A DNA stretch of 7,230 nucleotides from Candidatus Aminicenantota bacterium (GTDB lineage: Bacteria > Acidobacteriota > Aminicenantia > UBA2199), in contig CP070627.1 of NCBI GenBank assembly GCA_020355945.1, positions 7,890,665-7,897,894 of the forward strand, written 5' to 3'. Each line of letters starts with the position of its first letter. Position 1 is the first letter of the stretch. Positions 1 to 7,230 of this stretch are shown piece after piece. A program made the position numbers and the translations under genes. Under the pieces are notes generated by a model. It ran no database searches and was not told the origin of the DNA. It worked only from the letters and a program-made list of their open reading frames with translations.

Positions 1-374
1 CGGGGATGGATTCCCACTAACATTAAAATTTTCAGGGCCATTCGTTTGTGAAGGTTCCATCGTTCCATTGCCAGAGCCACCAGGAATCCGCCGATAAATA
101 TAAAGATAATATGGTTGACATATTGAGTGGAAACATCTTTGCCGTCCATGATGCCAAAGGCAGGGAAAAGGATGAGGGGGATCAATGCCGTGACAGCTAA
201 GGGAATGGCCTCGGTAATCCACCATACCGCCATTAAAAAAGCAATAGCAGCCGTATAGGTGATTTCACGATGCCTGGGGGAAAGATCAACGAATAAAATA
301 AATAATACACATAAAATAGGGACAACGATTAGAATAACTCTTTTAAACGTATCTGCTGACTTTGCCTGCTCCAT
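1..374 (-). CDS. SLC13/DASS-family anion:Na+ symporter, N-terminal part (3' end outside window)
   Basis: Reading the complement from ATG at 374 gives 124 residues open to the window edge. The start is fixed by an in-frame TGA two codons upstream. Visible features are a transmembrane helix at about residues 12-30, a second hydrophobic stretch with WWITEAIPLAVTALIPL at about 51-67, and IFIGGFLVALAMERWNLHKR at about 91-110. These are hallmarks of the divalent anion:sodium symporter family (SLC13, VcINDY-like), which imports dicarboxylates, sulfate or related anions across the cytoplasmic membrane. The sequence stops just before the region where the first Ser-Asn-Thr substrate/sodium motif is expected, so substrate cannot be inferred. 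Family size is usually 450-500 residues, so roughly a quarter is present. No SD sequence precedes the ATG; see the promoter entry. Family assignment is secure, substrate unknown. Confidence 0.9.
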   Translation of the reverse strand, partial: MEQAKSADTFKRVILIVVPILCVLFILFVDLSPRHREITYTAAIAFLMAVWWITEAIPLAVTALIPLILFPAFGIMDGKDVSTQYVNHIIFIFIGGFLVALAMERWNLHKRMALKILMLVGIHP

Positions 375-468: not shown

Positions 469-491
469 TGGCCGCCGGAGGCAAAAGTTGA
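469..491. repeat. 23-bp direct repeat, copy 1 (identical to 5704-5726)
   Basis: The 23 bases beginning TGGCCGCCGGAGGC are identical, in the same orientation, to 5704-5726. This copy ends 4 bases before the stop codon of the PKD/S51 gene. It is non-coding and GC-rich against an AT-rich background, suggesting a dispersed genomic repeat rather than part of either gene. Confidence 0.8.
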
Positions 492-495
492 ACGC

Positions 496-2088
496 TTAAT
501 CCGGTTCCTGGATATCGTTATCAATGGTACCGTTATTTACATTGACACTTTCCCAGGTACCGCCGGAACCGGTCCAGTTCACTAAATTAAACGTATTTAC
601 ACCGGATGGCCAACCTCTCACTTTGTAGACCGTCACTGCATCGGTCCAATGTAAAGGAGTACCGGATTGGCAAACATTCGGTGCCGTATCAGCTTCTAAG
701 AAGAACACGTAGTCGGTGTAGCCTTCCCAACCGAAAATTTTGGCCTGACCATTTTCAGCAACACAAACAGCCGCACCTTCATCACAGGCAATCGCTTTTG
801 TAGTATTTACCGTGGTAAACCCATCAATGATATTTCTTGCCATAAAGGTGATGACTCTGCCCAGTCGATCTCTTTCAGAGAAATGCGAATCCGTGATGAT
901 ACCCGATGAAAAAGGAATTTGGGTGATAAAATCTGTTTTCCGATAATTCATGTACTGGTGATAGGGATCAGATAGAGCTTCCGAAGAGTAAACCCCATAA
1001 GACTCAGGGATATAGTCAATCTCACCTAACACGGCCAGCCCCGCTGATGTTCCACCCACGGCCGCGTTTTTGACATTCACCAGGTAATCAATAGCACTTT
1101 CTACTTTAGTGTCATTCCAAAAGCTGTAGTAATCTGACTGGTCTCCACCGGCAATCCAGAGGGCTTCTGCATTTTTAATGACTTGTTCCACGTAAGTAGA
1201 ATTGGCGTATTCCAGTTTATTGATAACCAGGGTATGAACCGAATCCACACCACCGATTTGATTATAGATATAATCCTGGTAGCCATCGGAACGATCGGTG
1301 CGGATAACCACGAAGTCGCCGTTACTGGTCCTGGCCGTGAGCCAGGCCATGGCTTCATCACATTCCGGGCCCCCGCCCATATAGACGGTGCCGGCTTGAT
1401 GGCTGGTGGTCACCCATGCCGGATTTCCATCCACATAGACCCTCATACCACCTGGGGGGCTGCCCGGGTCTGGTTCACTACCGCTGGGATTTACTGTTAT
1501 AATAGCAGTATCATCGTCGGTCAGCCCACCGTTATCGGTTACGGTAAGGGTAGCTGTATATGTCCCGGCACTGGAATAGGTGTGGATAACGATCATTCCC
1601 GTGTCAGTATTCCCATCACCAAAGTCCCATTCATAAGAAGTTATGGTGCCATCCGGATCATAGGAACCCGAACCGTCAAAGGTGACTTGTTCACCCTCAT
1701 TGACCGTTTGGTCCGGACCTGCATCAGCTACCGGTGGAGTGTTGCCTCCATCATTTACTGTGATGATTGCCGTATCCGAATCTTTTTTTCCATTACTGTC
1801 CGTAACCGTAAGCGTGGCCGTATAGGTGCCGGCGCTTGAATACGTGTGGGTAACAATCATCCCTGAAGCTGTACCCCCATCGCCAAAATTCCATTCGTAA
1901 GAAACAAGCGTGCCTTTTTTAGCATAGGAGCCTGAACCGTCAAAGGTGACTTCTTCATCTACGTTCACGGTTTGGTCCGGCCCTGCGTCTGCTACCGGCG
2001 GTGGTGCACCTAATAGAATAGAAGGAATAAATAGTGTACTTGCCAGGAAAACAAAAAAGGCAAATACGGAACTTTTGAATTTATTCAT
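496..2088 (-). CDS. Secreted PKD-domain protein with cyanophycinase-like (peptidase S51) catalytic domain
   Basis: A 530-residue protein. Residues 1-28 are a signal peptide (Lys3 and Lys5, hydrophobic core 8-26, possible cleavage after LLGA). Two PKD domains follow at 30-112 and 118-200; they are tandem duplicates, about 65 of 83 positions identical, each with the DFGDG/NFGDG and HTYSSAGTYT motifs. A Pro/Gly/Ser linker (201-214) leads to an S51 domain at about 215-500. That domain shows GGDQ (314-317), the nucleophile motif GGTSAG with Ser348, DSHF with His402 followed by Arg406, Arg408 and Arg411 in the spacing I recall for cyanophycinase, and DEG with Glu437 as likely third catalytic residue. 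Known cyanophycinases cut beta-Asp-Arg dipeptides from cyanophycin; this one should act outside the cell, with PKD domains as surface or substrate-binding spacers. Its true substrate is not proven. The start is set by a strong SD, AAAGGAGG (2102-2095), 6 nt before ATG. It is monocistronic with its own promoter. Confidence 0.92.
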   Translation of the reverse strand: MNKFKSSVFAFFVFLASTLFIPSILLGAPPPVADAGPDQTVNVDEEVTFDGSGSYAKKGTLVSYEWNFGDGGTASGMIVTHTYSSAGTYTATLTVTDSNGKKDSDTAIITVNDGGNTPPVADAGPDQTVNEGEQVTFDGSGSYDPDGTITSYEWDFGDGNTDTGMIVIHTYSSAGTYTATLTVTDNGGLTDDDTAIITVNPSGSEPDPGSPPGGMRVYVDGNPAWVTTSHQAGTVYMGGGPECDEAMAWLTARTSNGDFVVIRTDRSDGYQDYIYNQIGGVDSVHTLVINKLEYANSTYVEQVIKNAEALWIAGGDQSDYYSFWNDTKVESAIDYLVNVKNAAVGGTSAGLAVLGEIDYIPESYGVYSSEALSDPYHQYMNYRKTDFITQIPFSSGIITDSHFSERDRLGRVITFMARNIIDGFTTVNTTKAIACDEGAAVCVAENGQAKIFGWEGYTDYVFFLEADTAPNVCQSGTPLHWTDAVTVYKVRGWPSGVNTFNLVNWTGSGGTWESVNVNNGTIDNDIQEPD

Positions 2089-2253: not shown

Positions 2254-2255
2254 AC

Positions 2256-2295
2256 GGGTACACGTGTACACGTGTTCACGGGTACGCGTGTTCAC
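2256..2295. repeat. GGGTAC...GTGTTCAC tandem cluster with 12-bp perfect palindrome
   Basis: Two related units lie in tandem, 24 nt (2256-2279) and 16 nt (2280-2295). Each begins GGGTAC and ends CGTGTTCAC. The first contains the perfect palindrome GTACACGTGTAC (2258-2269). The cluster sits immediately upstream of the -35 box of the SAM hydrolase promoter, so it could be a regulator binding site or a dispersed repeat. Confidence 0.55.
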
Positions 2296-2298
2296 CTG

Positions 2299-2327
2299 TT
2301 GAAATCCTGGCGTACTTCTCATATAAT
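2299..2327 (+). promoter_or_regulatory. SigA-type promoter of the SAM hydrolase gene
   Basis: TTGAAA (2299-2304) and TATAAT (2322-2327) are separated by exactly 17 bp. The predicted start near 2334 leaves a leader of about 67 nt before the ATG at 2401. This supports ATG 2401 rather than a longer reading from GTG at 2272, which would begin upstream of the promoter. Confidence 0.75.
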
Positions 2328-2400
2328 ATCAGGTGAACGAGGTTATTCGGTGAATGTATATGCCTTTCTGGATAAATTTTTAAAAAAAAGGAGACATAAA

Positions 2401-3207
2401 ATGAGCGCAAAAAATCAAATCTGCGGATTAATCACTGATTTTGGAAATAAGGATTATTTTGTTGGCGTAATGAAAGGTGTAATGAAAAGAATTACCCCTG
2501 GTATTGAAGTGATCGACATTTCCAATGATATTCCCTCTTACGGCTTACTGCCCGCCTCTTTTGCTATTGATAAGTCATACCGGTATTTTCCCGCTTCCAC
2601 TGTATTTTTGGTGGTGGTGGACCCGGGGGTAGGGACAGAACGAAAGATTCTCCTGGTGGAGTACGATAACCGTTATTTTATTGCACCGGATAACGGCGTG
2701 CTCACCCCGATTTTGCAAAAAGAGCAGAAAATTGTGGGTGTGGTTGACAATAAGAAATACTTTTTGATTGATGGGTATTCTACGTTTGAGGCCCGGGACA
2801 AAATGGCGCCTGCGGCTGCATATTTGGCAGGCGGTATTGATCCCTGGGAAATCGCTGCTCCTACCACTGACTTTATTGTGAACCCGAATTATTTTCCAAC
2901 CAAATCCGCCAACTCCATTAAAGCCGGGGTGGTCTATATCGACAAATTTGGAAACCTAATGACCAATGTGACCAAAGAGTTTCTTTTTGATACCCTCAAA
3001 GAAACCGGGCTGGCGAAATTCAGAGTAGAATTCAATGGCAGGGAAATTGATAAATATTATGATACTTATGCGTATGCCGGTTCGGAATCGGTTCCCTTTA
3101 TGTTGATTGGCAGTCATCAAAATCTTGAAATTGCCATGAATATGCAGTCGGCTGCTTCTGTTCTTGAAGCGGCTGTGGGTCAAAAGCTCCTCATCACATT
3201 CTACTGA
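2401..3207 (+). CDS. SAM hydrolase (adenosine-forming), DUF62 / SAM hydroxide adenosyltransferase family, with variant active site
   Basis: A 268-residue protein of normal length for this cytoplasmic family, which splits S-adenosylmethionine to adenosine and methionine and is related to the bacterial fluorinase and chlorinase. Supporting motifs are ITDFGNKDYF (residues 11-20, Asp13), VVVDPGVGTER (71-81, with Asp74 and Arg81 seven apart as in the Asp-Arg-His triad), APDNGVL (95-101), IDKFGNLMTNV (180-190) and the C-terminal IGSHQNLEIAMN (236-247). The third triad residue is missing: where hydrolases have STFHGRD, this protein has STFEARD, placing Glu130 at the His position. Activity may therefore be altered. 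ATG at 2401 has the SD AAGGAG (2388-2393) 7 nt upstream; the open frame back to GTG 2272 runs through repeats and the promoter. It stands alone, with no co-directional partner in the window. Its job in the cell is not evident from context. Confidence 0.9.
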   Translation: MSAKNQICGLITDFGNKDYFVGVMKGVMKRITPGIEVIDISNDIPSYGLLPASFAIDKSYRYFPASTVFLVVVDPGVGTERKILLVEYDNRYFIAPDNGVLTPILQKEQKIVGVVDNKKYFLIDGYSTFEARDKMAPAAAYLAGGIDPWEIAAPTTDFIVNPNYFPTKSANSIKAGVVYIDKFGNLMTNVTKEFLFDTLKETGLAKFRVEFNGREIDKYYDTYAYAGSESVPFMLIGSHQNLEIAMNMQSAASVLEAAVGQKLLITFY

Positions 3208-3506: not shown

Positions 3507-5117
3507 CTATACCGCTGTTTCATTTTTGAAGGCCTGGTACAATCCCTGACTGTAGGTGGCCAGGACCTGGTCTAACTCAAAAAGAATTTCAGACTGGATT
3601 TTCTGTTCCCGGGCAGCCAGGGCTCTTAACCTGGGCCAGGCCAGGGCCACACTCTCACTGTCCGGGCAGCTTTCAACCAGGTCCATGGCCTGGTCCAGGA
3701 CATCCAGGGCACTTTGGTTGGCGCGATCGCAAAGGGTGCGCAAAACCTGCTGGTAACGTTCGGTCCAGGGCCCTGGTTCGAAGGTTCTCACTACCAGGCA
3801 GTCAAAGTAAGCCTGGCGAAGACGCTCCACCAATCCGTTGGGATCGGAATTGCGGAAGCTGAAGTTAAGAGCAACAAAAAGAGCATAGTAATCCAGGCGC
3901 GGGTCTAACAAATCATAATCGGGTCGTATGTCGCTGCCCATCAGCCGGCCCTCTTGAGCAAGTCTATCTTCGATGGCGGTTCCTGCCAGGGGCAGCATCT
4001 TGACAAAGGAAATAGGCGGACCTCCCATACGAGCCACTTGCCTCAAGAAATGTAGATTCTCCCGAACCGTCTCCATGGTGCTGTCCGGGTCAAAAAGCAT
4101 AAATCCCATATCAAATTCAAGTCCCACATCTTTAAGCGTCTGCATAGCTGCCAGGTTTTGTTCCACTGTCACATGTTTGTTTAGAGTCTTCAAACCCAGA
4201 CGACTGCCGGATTCAACCCCCAGGTAGACCACCAATAGGCCGTGGTCCCGGCAGCGTGCCATCACGTCCGGTTGTATGTCATCCACCCGACAGGAGACTT
4301 TCCAGCCTATCTTGCCTTTAAGGCCCGCTGCCTCCAGTTCATGTAAAAAATTCTCTATCCAGCGCACCTGCCGGTCGGACTTAGCAGCAAAATCGTCATC
4401 CTGGAATAGGAACAAGCAAATCCCCCGGGACTTGTAGAGGTACTTCATTTCAGCCGCCACATCCTGGGGGGAGCGAATACGCCGAAGCGGACCAGGGGCG
4501 CCTCCATAAAACTGGCGTATACTGCAAAAGGAGCAGTTGTACAAGCAGCCGCGGCTTGCCAGGATAGGCGCCATTCCCCTACCTCGGGAACTTTGTCGAA
4601 TTTCTCCCCGCCGGGGCCAGGGCAATTCATCCAGGTTAGCCAGGAGAGGACGCGGCGGGTTAATTACTATTTCCCCTTCCCGTCGGAAGGCCAGCCCCAA
4701 AATGCCAGGCCATTCCTGGGGCTGATTCAATTTGCTCAGAAGTTCAACGGTGGTTAATTCCCCTTCGAATATGACGATAGAATCCAGGTACTTCAGTTCA
4801 GCCAGGGTACGCACCGGACGCAAGCTGGGATAATGACCGCCCGCAGTAAAGTGGGCCCTGACACCCTCCTGGCGCAGCATCTCCATGAGTTCGCCAAATT
4901 CGTGCAGGTTGTATTGAAAGATGATGGAGAAGCCTATCAGGTCGGGGGAACTTCGTTTAGCAACCTCCAGGACATCGGTGGGATTACCTGGTTTATAGGG
5001 TGCCAGTGCGCTGCGAAAACCCTTAGCCTCAATGTAAGCCATGATATAGCGCAGTCCCAGGTTCTCCTGGTTTTCATATCCAACAAACAGTGCATCTACT
5101 TTGTGGATAGAACCCAA
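3507..5117 (-). CDS. Cobalamin-binding-domain radical SAM enzyme, function unknown
   Basis: Coded on the complement; 536 residues from TTG at 5117. This start is preferred because GAGG (5127-5124, within AGAGGTGG) sits 6 nt before it. A TTG at 5141 adds 8 residues but has no SD, and an in-frame TAA lies just upstream. Residues about 7-150 form a Rossmann-like B12-binding region (VDALFVGYE at the first strand, GGHYPS near 93). The DxHxxG His motif is replaced by ENQENLG, so cobalamin, if bound, would lack His ligation. The radical SAM core follows with SRGCLYNCSFCSI; Cys191, Cys195 and Cys198 form CxxxCxxC for the 4Fe-4S cluster. GVESGS (300-305) fits the SAM-binding barrel. About 150 C-terminal residues, rich in helix, match nothing I recognise. 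Related enzymes do methylations, ring closures and peptide modification. It probably shares a transcript with the 71-residue protein upstream (70-nt gap, or 46 nt from 5141). Confidence 0.9.
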   Translation of the reverse strand: MGSIHKVDALFVGYENQENLGLRYIMAYIEAKGFRSALAPYKPGNPTDVLEVAKRSSPDLIGFSIIFQYNLHEFGELMEMLRQEGVRAHFTAGGHYPSLRPVRTLAELKYLDSIVIFEGELTTVELLSKLNQPQEWPGILGLAFRREGEIVINPPRPLLANLDELPWPRRGEIRQSSRGRGMAPILASRGCLYNCSFCSIRQFYGGAPGPLRRIRSPQDVAAEMKYLYKSRGICLFLFQDDDFAAKSDRQVRWIENFLHELEAAGLKGKIGWKVSCRVDDIQPDVMARCRDHGLLVVYLGVESGSRLGLKTLNKHVTVEQNLAAMQTLKDVGLEFDMGFMLFDPDSTMETVRENLHFLRQVARMGGPPISFVKMLPLAGTAIEDRLAQEGRLMGSDIRPDYDLLDPRLDYYALFVALNFSFRNSDPNGLVERLRQAYFDCLVVRTFEPGPWTERYQQVLRTLCDRANQSALDVLDQAMDLVESCPDSESVALAWPRLRALAAREQKIQSEILFELDQVLATYSQGLYQAFKNETAV

Positions 5118-5187
5118 CGCCCACCTCTCATATAAAGGCAAAAGGCAATGATATCGATTAAGTTACTGCCTGGTCACCGGAAAGCTG

Positions 5188-5403
5188 CTAAATGTTGATA
5201 TTTTCTACTATCTTGATAATCTCATCGCAAGTCTGCATCTCTTGTTGTAAAGTTTTCGTTTGAGCTCTCAACTGGATGAGGGTGATTTCTTTCAGCTTAT
5301 CGTGCGGAATGATCTTCAAAAATACCGGGTCAAATATGGGACCAATACGGTCAGCAATACTCAGCGGTCTGACTGCCGAGGTAGGTATTTCTCCATTTGG
5401 CAT
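5188..5403 (-). CDS. Small 71-residue protein upstream of the radical SAM gene, unknown function
   Basis: I do not recognise this protein. It starts at ATG 5403 behind a near-perfect SD (AAAGGGAGGT, 5420-5411, 7 nt spacing) and a strong promoter, so it is very likely translated. Residues 1-20 look flexible (MPNGEIPTSAVRPL); the middle carries GPIFDPVFLKIIPHDKLKE (21-39); the rest looks like one amphipathic helix or short coiled coil (about 36-69) rich in Gln, Glu, Lys and Ile, with a single Cys59. There is no signal peptide, transmembrane segment or Gly-Gly leader site. It is the first gene of a likely two-gene operon with the radical SAM enzyme, so it may be its substrate, a peptide carrier or a small partner protein. 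It could equally be an unrelated small regulator. The gene is real with good confidence; the role is inference only. Confidence 0.75.
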   Translation of the reverse strand: MPNGEIPTSAVRPLSIADRIGPIFDPVFLKIIPHDKLKEITLIQLRAQTKTLQQEMQTCDEIIKIVENINI

Positions 5404-5431
5404 TTTTTTTACCTCCCTTTAAAAGAATTGT

Positions 5432-5457
5432 TACAAAATAGAATTATATATTTTGTA
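5432..5457. promoter_or_regulatory. Inverted repeat with 9-bp perfect arms at the 5' end of the small-protein/radical SAM transcript
   Basis: TACAAAATA (5432-5440) and TATTTTGTA (5449-5457) are perfect complements around an 8-nt spacer. On the complement this begins at or one base after the predicted transcription start (about 5458) and ends roughly 28 nt before the start codon. It could be a repressor operator or a 5' hairpin that protects the mRNA. Confidence 0.5.
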
Positions 5458-5464
5458 GAAAAAA

Positions 5465-5493
5465 ATTGTATCATAGGGAAAATTTGTTGTCAA
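5465..5493 (-). promoter_or_regulatory. Extended -10 SigA promoter of the small-protein/radical SAM operon
   Basis: On the complement, TTGACA (5493-5488) and TACAAT (5470-5465) are separated by exactly 17 bp, with TG one base before the -10 box (TGATACAAT). The -35 box begins about 10 bp beyond the last recognisable sigma-factor codon of the relic at 5503-5655, so the promoter sits at the broken edge of an older gene. The predicted leader is about 55 nt. Confidence 0.85.
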
Positions 5494-5502
5494 GTTAGCA
5501 GT

Positions 5503-5655
5503 CTTTTGGCGGCTGAGCATATTCAGGCAGCAGTTACGCAAAATCCGGTAAAACCAGGGATAAAAAAAGTCCTGCCGCTGCAGACGGGAAATCGCTTTAA
5601 AGGCTCGTGTAAAAGAATCCTGGCAGGCATCTGCCGCATCCTCTCGTCTCCGGGT
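5503..5655 (-). pseudogene. Relic of an ECF RNA polymerase sigma factor (region 2 only)
   Basis: The complement encodes REDAADACQDSFTRAF followed by FYPWFYRILRNCCLNML, which matches sigma-70 region 2 of ECF factors: the DAED-QE-F-RA helix, then F-WLYRIARN-LD-LRR for core and -10 recognition. Homology ends at SRQKT near 5503. The frame then reads through the promoter and leader of the next gene and stops near 5431, with no region 4. At the 5' side the frame runs to TTG 5694 without an SD, and the usual N-terminal helix of region 2 is not recognisable. A complete ECF factor has about 160-200 residues; about 50 remain. It is therefore broken at both ends and not expected to work. Confidence 0.8.
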
Positions 5656-5703
5656 ACAAATTTTTGCCTGTCCCCGTATTACCGTATTTCTCAAAAAGGG
5701 TTA

Positions 5704-5726
5704 TGGCCGCCGGAGGCAAAAGTTGA
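5704..5726. repeat. 23-bp direct repeat, copy 2 (identical to 469-491)
   Basis: Exact same-orientation copy of 469-491. It lies between the sigma relic and the promoter of the metalloprotease gene, ending 8 bp before that promoter's -35 box. It may mark the breakpoint that truncated the sigma gene. Confidence 0.8.
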
Positions 5727-5800: not shown

Positions 5801-7230
5801 GTGGACTTCACAATGATTGCCCTGTATGGTATCGGAGGCATCCTGGTGGTTTATTTTCTACTTTATATTTTTACAGCCCAAACCATCCTGGGATTTGTTT
5901 TAAAAAAACCCGGTATAAAAATAGTAGACCGGTCCGACTGCCCGGGATATTTAAGAAACTTATTTGAAATCAAAGAGAAAGAACTGTTGGAACTGGGCTT
6001 TAACTACCTCTACTGTATGCTGGTGGATGACCTGTATGTCAAAAAATATTCCCGGAAATATACATTGGTATATTATCATCCCCAAGAAAAAACCTATGCG
6101 GAATTATCGACATCGGATGCGGCTGATCATGTGATACCCGTGCAGGTATCATTTTCCACCCATTTTACCAACGGTAACCGGCTGATTAGTCTCAATGGCT
6201 TAAAACACGGCGTGTTAGGCACGATTCCCAATGCTATACTGATCGACCCCTATGCTGAAACATTGAAAAAACAGTTTGATTTCCACCTGCACCACCTGGC
6301 CGCCGCAGGTGATAAGGAAGGTGAGATCAAGGAATGGCAGCCGGATAAACTGCTAAATCCCGATGAAATCACCCGGGGAGAAAGCCTCCGCTTTGAAAAC
6401 TATTTAAAACAACTGGAAAAAGAGGGTTATATATATCATGCCGGGGATAATAACTATTTGATCAGGACAATTCCCTCGCTGCGTTTTGCCCACCAAATGA
6501 TTTCAGGCTTAAAAAAAATCACCCGACTGCGCGGCAAAATAACCAGGCTGCGGGGCAGGGCAAAACAAACAGACCTGCCTGTAGAACTGGAAGTAACCAA
6601 TTATTTGAATACCCGGGCCGTTTTCAATCAACAAATAAGGAACAGCAGCGGTAAACTCTTTTTTCTCCTGTTATCGGTTTTATTATTTGGCGCGGCTTTC
6701 AGTCTCATTTTATCCGTTGAATGGGTGCTGTTACTTATTGCGGTTGTATTTTTACATGAGGGAGGTCATTTACTGGCCATGCGTATATTTGGCTACAAGA
6801 ATTTACGAATGTTATTTATCCCGCTTTTTGGTGCGGTTGCCATGGGCACGGATAAAGATGTGGCCCCTTATAAAAAAGTGATTACCTATTTTGCCGGTCC
6901 GGTCCCGGGCATATTGCTGGCATTCCTGTTACTGGCAACACAACTAAACGCGGGAGTAGCGCTGCAATCATCCGCGACACTGATGACAGTGATTGCTGTA
7001 CTTTTGATTCTCAACTATTTTAACTTGATCCCCATAATGCCTTTTGACGGCGGCCAGGTTTTTAATACCGTCATATTCTCAAGGTTTCCCACATTACAAT
7101 TGGTATTTAATATCATCAGTTTTACAGCGGTCCTGTTACTGGCTTTTATTTTGCAGTCGCCTTTGTTGTTTTTTGTTGCCCTGGTGATTTTTTTGGGGCT
7201 CCGGCAGTTTTTTACCCAGAGACGAATCAT
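5801..7230 (+). CDS. Site-2-protease-like membrane zinc metalloprotease (M50 class), 3' end outside window
   Basis: An uninterrupted frame of 476 codons runs from GTG 5801 to the window edge. The SD GAGAGG (5789-5794) lies 6 nt upstream. ATG at 5813 is four codons in and less well placed. A membrane helix at residues about 5-32 is followed by a large soluble region (about 33-280) that I do not recognise; it has no obvious PDZ domain. A transmembrane bundle then begins near 285. The zinc site is HEGGH (319-323; His319, Glu320, His323) inside a helix, and the third ligand is in NLIPIMPFDGGQ (408-419, Asp416), the classic S2P pair of motifs. FAGPVPGILLAFLL (about 367-380) is the conserved intervening helix. 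Such enzymes cut membrane-embedded substrates, often anti-sigma factors or other regulators. No target is identifiable here; the neighbouring sigma relic is suggestive only. The gene is divergent from the small-protein operon. Confidence 0.9.
   Translation, partial: MDFTMIALYGIGGILVVYFLLYIFTAQTILGFVLKKPGIKIVDRSDCPGYLRNLFEIKEKELLELGFNYLYCMLVDDLYVKKYSRKYTLVYYHPQEKTYAELSTSDAADHVIPVQVSFSTHFTNGNRLISLNGLKHGVLGTIPNAILIDPYAETLKKQFDFHLHHLAAAGDKEGEIKEWQPDKLLNPDEITRGESLRFENYLKQLEKEGYIYHAGDNNYLIRTIPSLRFAHQMISGLKKITRLRGKITRLRGRAKQTDLPVELEVTNYLNTRAVFNQQIRNSSGKLFFLLLSVLLFGAAFSLILSVEWVLLLIAVVFLHEGGHLLAMRIFGYKNLRMLFIPLFGAVAMGTDKDVAPYKKVITYFAGPVPGILLAFLLLATQLNAGVALQSSATLMTVIAVLLILNYFNLIPIMPFDGGQVFNTVIFSRFPTLQLVFNIISFTAVLLLAFILQSPLLFFVALVIFLGLRQFFTQRRI

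What the first reader, a model, noticed from the sequence alone, without database searches (positions are those of the whole stretch)
3507..5403. Two-gene unit: unknown 71-residue protein plus B12-type radical SAM enzyme
A short, well-expressed gene with no recognisable family sits directly upstream of a cobalamin-type radical SAM enzyme whose C-terminal part is also unrecognised. The pair has one strong promoter and no terminator between the genes. Small gene plus radical SAM enzyme is the layout of ribosomal peptide modification systems and of enzyme/small-partner pairs. The small protein lacks a leader cleavage motif and Cys-rich core, so it may represent a different type of substrate or a chaperone-like partner. 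This is the best candidate in the window for an undescribed system.
Basis: partly seen in the sequence, partly recalled or inferred. Interest (0 to 1): 0.7.

Follow-up and report, generated by a model that had tools for sequence, protein, structure and literature searches.

The report
Small protein paired with B12-radical enzyme
A 71-residue protein of unknown family sits in front of a vitamin-B12-type radical enzyme, and the same pair turns up in other groups of bacteria with one almost unchanging stretch in the small protein, which points to an undescribed enzyme/partner system whose chemistry is not known.

Summary
On the minus strand a strong promoter-like site (5493-5465) precedes a 71-aa gene (5403-5188) and, 70 nt on, a 536-aa B12-binding/radical SAM enzyme (TTG 5117 to 3507), with no terminator between. 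The small protein matches no Pfam or NCBIfam family but has 49 relatives, and it is linked to this enzyme: 12 small proteins (11 without the window's own) report the same longest-contig length as one of 120 listed enzyme homologues, against 0.33 expected. All 50 carry RIGPI[F/L]D, 52-57 residues before the C-end, then a predicted long helix (window protein). The enzyme is a class-1 cobalamin radical SAM protein; its Pfam-blank C-terminal part is a helical bundle like OxsB's. None of the 25 NCBIfam models shown reaches its cut-off. Whether the small protein is the substrate (slightly favoured) or an accessory subunit is undecided. Most listed enzymes could not be tied to a small protein (9 of 60 on contigs of 5 kb or more), so the pair is either not universal or under-detected. 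No neighbourhood beyond this window could be read.

The parts
5465..5493 (-). promoter-like site TTGACA-17-TACAAT with TG before the -10
5411..5417 (-). Shine-Dalgarno-like GGGAGGT of the small gene
   Evidence: sequence
5188..5403 (-). small gene, 71 aa: flexible N-terminus, RIGPIFD motif at residues 19-25, predicted helix 34-67
5118..5187 (-). 70-nt gap without terminator-like site; holds GAGAGGTGGG (5129-5120) before the enzyme's TTG start
3507..5117 (-). class-1 cobalamin-dependent radical SAM enzyme, 536 aa: B12 Rossmann domain, CX3CX2C barrel, C-terminal helical bundle

Best explanation
The two genes form a dedicated pair. Inferred: the small protein binds the enzyme through its conserved motif and helix. 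Inferred, and only slightly favoured over the rival: the small protein is the enzyme's ribosomally made substrate. The extended RIGPIFDP segment would enter the active site and be altered there (C-methylation or a radical ring or cross-link; which one is not determinable here), while the fixed-length helix behind it would serve as the recognition (follower-like) part. The altered protein or peptide would act inside the cell, since no exporter is encoded beside the pair in this window.
For: Pairing: 12 coincidences of longest-contig length (11 without the window's own) against a shifted-length control with mean 0.33 and maximum 4 in 10,000 sets. On the 2105-base contig reported for P0145 and P0019 only 290 bases are left outside the two genes, so they must be neighbours if it is one contig. 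The two partners diverge in parallel over the 12 pairs, r=0.82, Mantel p=0.0001, the floor of 9,999 shuffles. Motif: R, I, G, P, I, D and L at window positions 19-23, 25 and 29 are the same in 50 of 50, F24 in 49 and P26 in 46, in proteins 30-56% identical to the window's. The motif lies where the prediction is not confident (block means 55 and 66), before a confident long helix, as expected of a segment that orders on binding. The small gene has the strong promoter, ribosome site and an ATG, the enzyme a TTG, which suggests excess of the small protein (inference). One source has two copies with neighbouring locus tags, P0002 and P0003, identical over 51 residues and 10 of 21 alike afterwards. 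Other cobalamin radical SAM enzymes act on small linked peptides with a conserved motif, e.g. PbsB on FHAFRF peptides (PMC12257519, abstract and passages).
Against: No cleavage motif recognised, no variable core, no protease or exporter in the unit, and no RRE (PqqD-like) Pfam match in the enzyme; the PbsB system has an RRE protein, other enzymes and a protease. The part behind the motif keeps a fixed length (52-57 residues counted from the motif's first residue, 50 of 50) and conserved E and A positions, which fits a subunit as well as a follower. Parallel divergence may reflect only common descent. The pair was not detected in clades of 46, 11, 27 and 2 rows, nor in 14 of 21 rows of the window's own clade, several of them on contigs over 10 kb.
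Confidence: 0.45

Rival explanations
1. The small protein is a non-substrate accessory subunit: its helix packs on the enzyme (perhaps on the C-terminal helical bundle) and the RIGPIFDP segment shapes or closes the active site, while the true substrate is a small molecule, lipid or another protein.
For: Fixed length from motif to C-end and conserved Ala/Glu positions in the helix; the nearest whole-length fold is OxsB, which is reported to need a second protein, OxsA, to avoid shunt product, though direct binding is not reported (PMC13331322 passages). No cleavage motif, protease or exporter in the unit.
Against: OxsA is an HD-domain phosphohydrolase, not a small helical protein. BchE, for which a partner was long suspected, was found active alone (PMC13142503 passages). 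Among characterised class-1 enzymes that act on small molecules I recall none with a dedicated 70-aa subunit (recall). Tandem copies in one source and the stronger expression signals of the small gene fit a substrate better.
Confidence: 0.4
2. The genes are only neighbours by common inheritance; the small protein works apart from the enzyme.
For: Pair not detected in several enzyme clades; the same-contig evidence gives no gene order except on one short contig.
Against: The pair recurs in three parts of the enzyme tree with parallel divergence, and one 2.1-kb contig leaves little room for other genes.
Confidence: 0.1
3. The small protein is a redox or metal-delivery partner of the enzyme.
For: Radical SAM enzymes need an electron donor (established knowledge).
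Against: 48 of 50 members have no Cys and 20 of 50 no His, and neither residue is invariant at any position.
Confidence: 0.03

Closest known systems
OxsB (with OxsA), oxetanocin A biosynthesis
   Different: No extra N-terminal domain; Ile65 (30 of 32; Leu in 2) stands where OxsB has Asn186 under the cobalt; the partner matches no HD-phosphohydrolase family.
BchE / HpnJ / HpnR group of cobalamin radical SAM enzymes
   Same: Among the best NCBIfam matches (98.8, 91.2 and 77 bits).
   Different: Far below the cut-offs (481, 578, 650 bits).
Cobalamin radical SAM enzymes of ribosomal peptides (PbsB, ApyD, bottromycin methyltransferases, TIGR03975)
   Same: Enzyme beside a small gene with a conserved motif. 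In bottromycin the N-terminus of the precursor is the product part and a follower lies behind it (PMC5103208 passages), as motif-then-helix would be here. The bottromycin core as I recall it resembles GPIFD; that is memory, not a test.
   Different: ApyD 84.5 of 750 bits and TIGR03975 45.7 of 282 bits; no RRE, protease or exporter in the unit and no variable core seen here, whereas the pbs cluster has an RRE protein, an MNIO, further enzymes and an exporter.

Membership tests
class-1 cobalamin-dependent radical SAM enzymes | N-terminal B12-binding Rossmann domain before the radical SAM barrel | tested here: met
   Pfam PF02310 at 26-134 and PF04055 at 195-365 of the 544-aa ORF; fold match
class-1 cobalamin-dependent radical SAM enzymes | CX3CX2C cluster motif | tested here: met
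   C190, C194, C197 in 32 of 32 aligned members
class-1 cobalamin-dependent radical SAM enzymes | C-terminal helical bundle | tested here: met
   AlphaFold2 model, mean pLDDT 93, helices from 405 to 534; 486 of 535 model residues align with OxsB, so at least 81 of these 130 do. A predicted fold only.
class-1 cobalamin-dependent radical SAM enzymes | binds cobalamin and cleaves SAM | not testable with these tools
   needs purified protein
OxsB/AlsB | extra N-terminal domain | tested here: not met
   the protein begins at the Rossmann domain; OxsB aligns from its residue 115-117 on
OxsB/AlsB | Asn in the loop after strand 3 under the cobalt (as described for OxsB) | tested here: not met
   Ile65 in 30 of 32, Leu in 2; read from a sequence alignment
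BchE / HpnJ / HpnR | score over the NCBIfam equivalog cut-off | tested here: not met
   98.8/481, 91.2/578, 77/650 bits
RiPP radical SAM enzymes TIGR03975 and ApyD | score over the NCBIfam cut-off | tested here: not met
   45.7/282 and 84.5/750 bits
RiPP precursor peptides in general | small gene linked to a candidate modifying enzyme | tested here: met
RiPP precursor peptides in general | RRE domain in enzyme or neighbour | tested here: inconclusive
   no PqqD-like Pfam match in the enzyme; the genome outside the window was not readable
RiPP precursor peptides in general | modified residue in the small protein | not testable with these tools
   needs mass spectrometry

The most novel reading that the evidence does not exclude
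A two-gene protein-modification system shared between phyla: a cobalamin radical SAM enzyme alters an internal, nearly invariant RIGPIFDP segment of a helical small protein, which then acts as a protein-derived cofactor or signal inside the cell, without leader, protease or exporter in the unit.
Probability: 0.3. Interest if true: 0.8.

Novelty: new variant of a known kind. Interest (0 to 1): 0.58.

Why it matters
Cobalamin radical SAM enzymes are a large class in which few members have a known reaction. A subfamily with its own co-inherited small protein gives a concrete handle: the motif names the residues to look at, and one co-expression would tell whether the small protein is a substrate. 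If it is, this would be a minimal two-gene modification system outside the usual antibiotic-type clusters; if it is a subunit, it would be an unusual case of a small-protein-dependent enzyme of this class.

Tried and rejected
Known family for the small protein: none in Pfam or NCBIfam for the window's protein at E<=1. Among the 50 members Pfam gives three families at E 0.039-0.054, each in one member, taken as chance; NCBIfam gives none at E<=0.01. Best PDB sequence match of the profile is E 0.58. Foldseek on the small model returned no match, but that model has mean pLDDT 73.9. Redox partner set aside for lack of Cys. RNA element: no Rfam match at gathering score in the window. Terminator or attenuator between the genes: none seen, fold z 0.33. 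PHROGs and PADLOC were not searched.

Genome context elsewhere: the one genome-contig scan, made with the single window enzyme, gave one 24% Prochlorococcus match; an alignment would have been the better query. Viral contigs: no relatives of the small protein and four loci at 23-26% for the enzyme. Plasmids: none for the small protein, 14 records at under 32% identity for the enzyme. Genomes of the phylum of that Prochlorococcus: 0 of 146 and 0 of 386 at E<=1e-60 (the two draws appear to overlap, and no positive control was available, so this shows little). Gene order and presence or absence in complete genomes therefore rest on reported contig lengths alone. Which listed enzymes truly lack the small gene cannot be told: the profile search scored only 108 candidates that share short words with five sequences, and the enzyme list is the best 120 of 1621.

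Literature: a locus-tag prefix; 5 of 5,338 listed, none of the five with the tag; 0 papers; motif words, 0; 15 of 54 listed; 11 listed; 1; 1; 8 listed. I saw nothing on this pair in these listings. Only open-licence PMC papers are covered, so 'undescribed' means not found there. Four papers were opened in part: PMC13331322 (passages and one section), PMC5103208, PMC13142503 and PMC12257519 (passages).

Full report
What is there. The minus strand carries, in order, a near-consensus promoter-like site with an extended -10 (5493-5465), a strong ribosome site (5417-5411), a 71-codon gene (5403-5188), a 70-nt gap without terminator-like site and a cobalamin-type radical SAM gene. Its start is best placed at TTG 5117, giving 536 aa, the length of the database copy (P0006), with GAGAGGTGGG ahead of it.

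The small protein. A single-sequence search gave 5 proteins including itself. A profile of those five gave 50, including itself, with E-values from 6.5e-38 to 3.8e-8. All 50 were aligned. Window residues R19, I20, G21, P22, I23, D25 and L29 are the same in 50 of 50, I16 and F24 in 49, E55 in 48, P26 and A58 in 46. RIGPI[F/L]D is in 50 of 50 and exact RIGPIFDP in 45. The N-terminus varies in length (motif start at residue 13 to 35), whereas the length from the motif's first residue to the C-end stays at 52-57 in all 50. AlphaFold2 for the window's protein gives mean pLDDT 73.9: residues 1-9 below 50, the two blocks with the motif 55 and 66, and one helix 34-67 in blocks of 81-92. Two of 50 members contain Cys, the window's own (C59) being one. 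No Pfam or NCBIfam model fits the family.

The link. Without contig access I compared the 'longest contig' values of the two search tables. Of 49 small-protein entries (P0002 and P0003 report one length and were entered once), 12 equal a value among the 120 listed enzymes. Leaving out the window's own, 11 against a mean of 0.33 and a maximum of 4 in 10,000 sets with lengths shifted by up to 10%. Among small proteins with a contig of at least 5 kb, 9 of 11 are matched, of at least 2 kb 12 of 22, the window included. That an equal length means one contig is inference; for two pairs the source names agree: Chloroflexota (P0130, P0020) and Bryobacteraceae (P0150, P0069). Deltaproteobacteria is named for P0002 and P0003, whose enzyme was not seen. 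For P0145 and P0019 the contig leaves only 290 bases beside the two genes; for P0004/P0029 1043, for P0150/P0069 2061 and for P0005/P0063 3733. Pairwise distances of the 12 pairs correlate at r=0.82, Mantel p=0.0001; this shows joint descent, not contact.

Limits. In the tree of 117 enzymes over 500 aa (of 120; three shorter ones dropped; quick method) the 12 paired rows fall in three parts of the 90-row side: a 4-row, a 6-row and a 21-row clade with 3, 2 and 7 paired rows. None falls in the clades of 46, 11, 27 and 2 rows, although several of these have contigs above 50 kb, and in the window's own 21-row clade 14 rows are unpaired, some on contigs of 11-151 kb. Of 60 enzymes with contigs of at least 5 kb, 9 are tied to a small protein. 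The small-protein search needs shared 5-residue words and sees only called genes, and a cluster's longest contig need not be the one that carries its partner, so this is a lower bound; but the pair may really be absent from many of these.

How it may work. Two readings share the shown part. Substrate: the motif looks like an extended linear segment that hardly changes, and in the PbsB system, a cobalamin radical SAM enzyme with small linked genes, the conserved motif is what is modified (PMC12257519, abstract and passages). Expression signals favour the small protein, and one source has tandem copies. Subunit: constant length behind the motif, conserved positions in the helix, no processing genes, and a structural relative that depends on a second protein. 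I put these at 0.45 and 0.40. Redox partner and unrelated neighbour are unlikely. The checking round mended statements and added the unpaired rows of the window's own clade; the odds already allowed for under-detection and were left as they were.

Surroundings. The other genes do not extend the unit: a convergent SAM hydroxide adenosyltransferase-type gene (2272-3207, +), a divergent M50-type membrane peptidase (+, from about 5810, running off the window) and a truncated sigma-70 region-2 fragment (5431-5700, -) that overlaps the promoter-like site. The peptidase is not in the transcription unit and no relative's neighbourhood could be read, so no role is assigned.

Noticed in passing
window 5431-5700 (-): Sigma-70 region-2 fragment (Pfam 42.5 bits) without region 4, ending just before the small gene and overlapping its promoter-like site; looks like a truncated ECF sigma factor remnant.
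   Followed up: partly
window about 5810-7228 (+): Divergent gene for an M50-type (site-2) membrane metallopeptidase running off the window (Pfam 47.7 bits).
   Followed up: partly
window 2272-3207 (+): SAM hydroxide adenosyltransferase / (R)-SAM hydrolase-type gene, convergent to the enzyme; over the Pfam cut-offs, below the NCBIfam equivalog cut-offs.
   Followed up: partly
window 496-2088 (-): Protein with two PKD domains and a weak Peptidase_S51 match (19.5 of 23.9 bits).
   Followed up: no
window 469-491 and 5704-5726 (+): Perfect 23-nt direct repeat (TGGCCGCCGGAGGCAAAAGTTGA) 5.2 kb apart, just outside the called genes.
   Followed up: no
window 2254-2293: Four imperfect 16-nt copies stepping by 8 nt (ACGTGTAC-like), at the front of the SAM hydrolase-type gene.
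   Followed up: no
proteins P0002 and P0003 (C4B58_16005, C4B58_16010): Two small-protein copies with neighbouring locus tags, identical over 51 residues, then only 10 of 21 alike; suggests conversion of the front part or divergence of the tail.
   Followed up: partly
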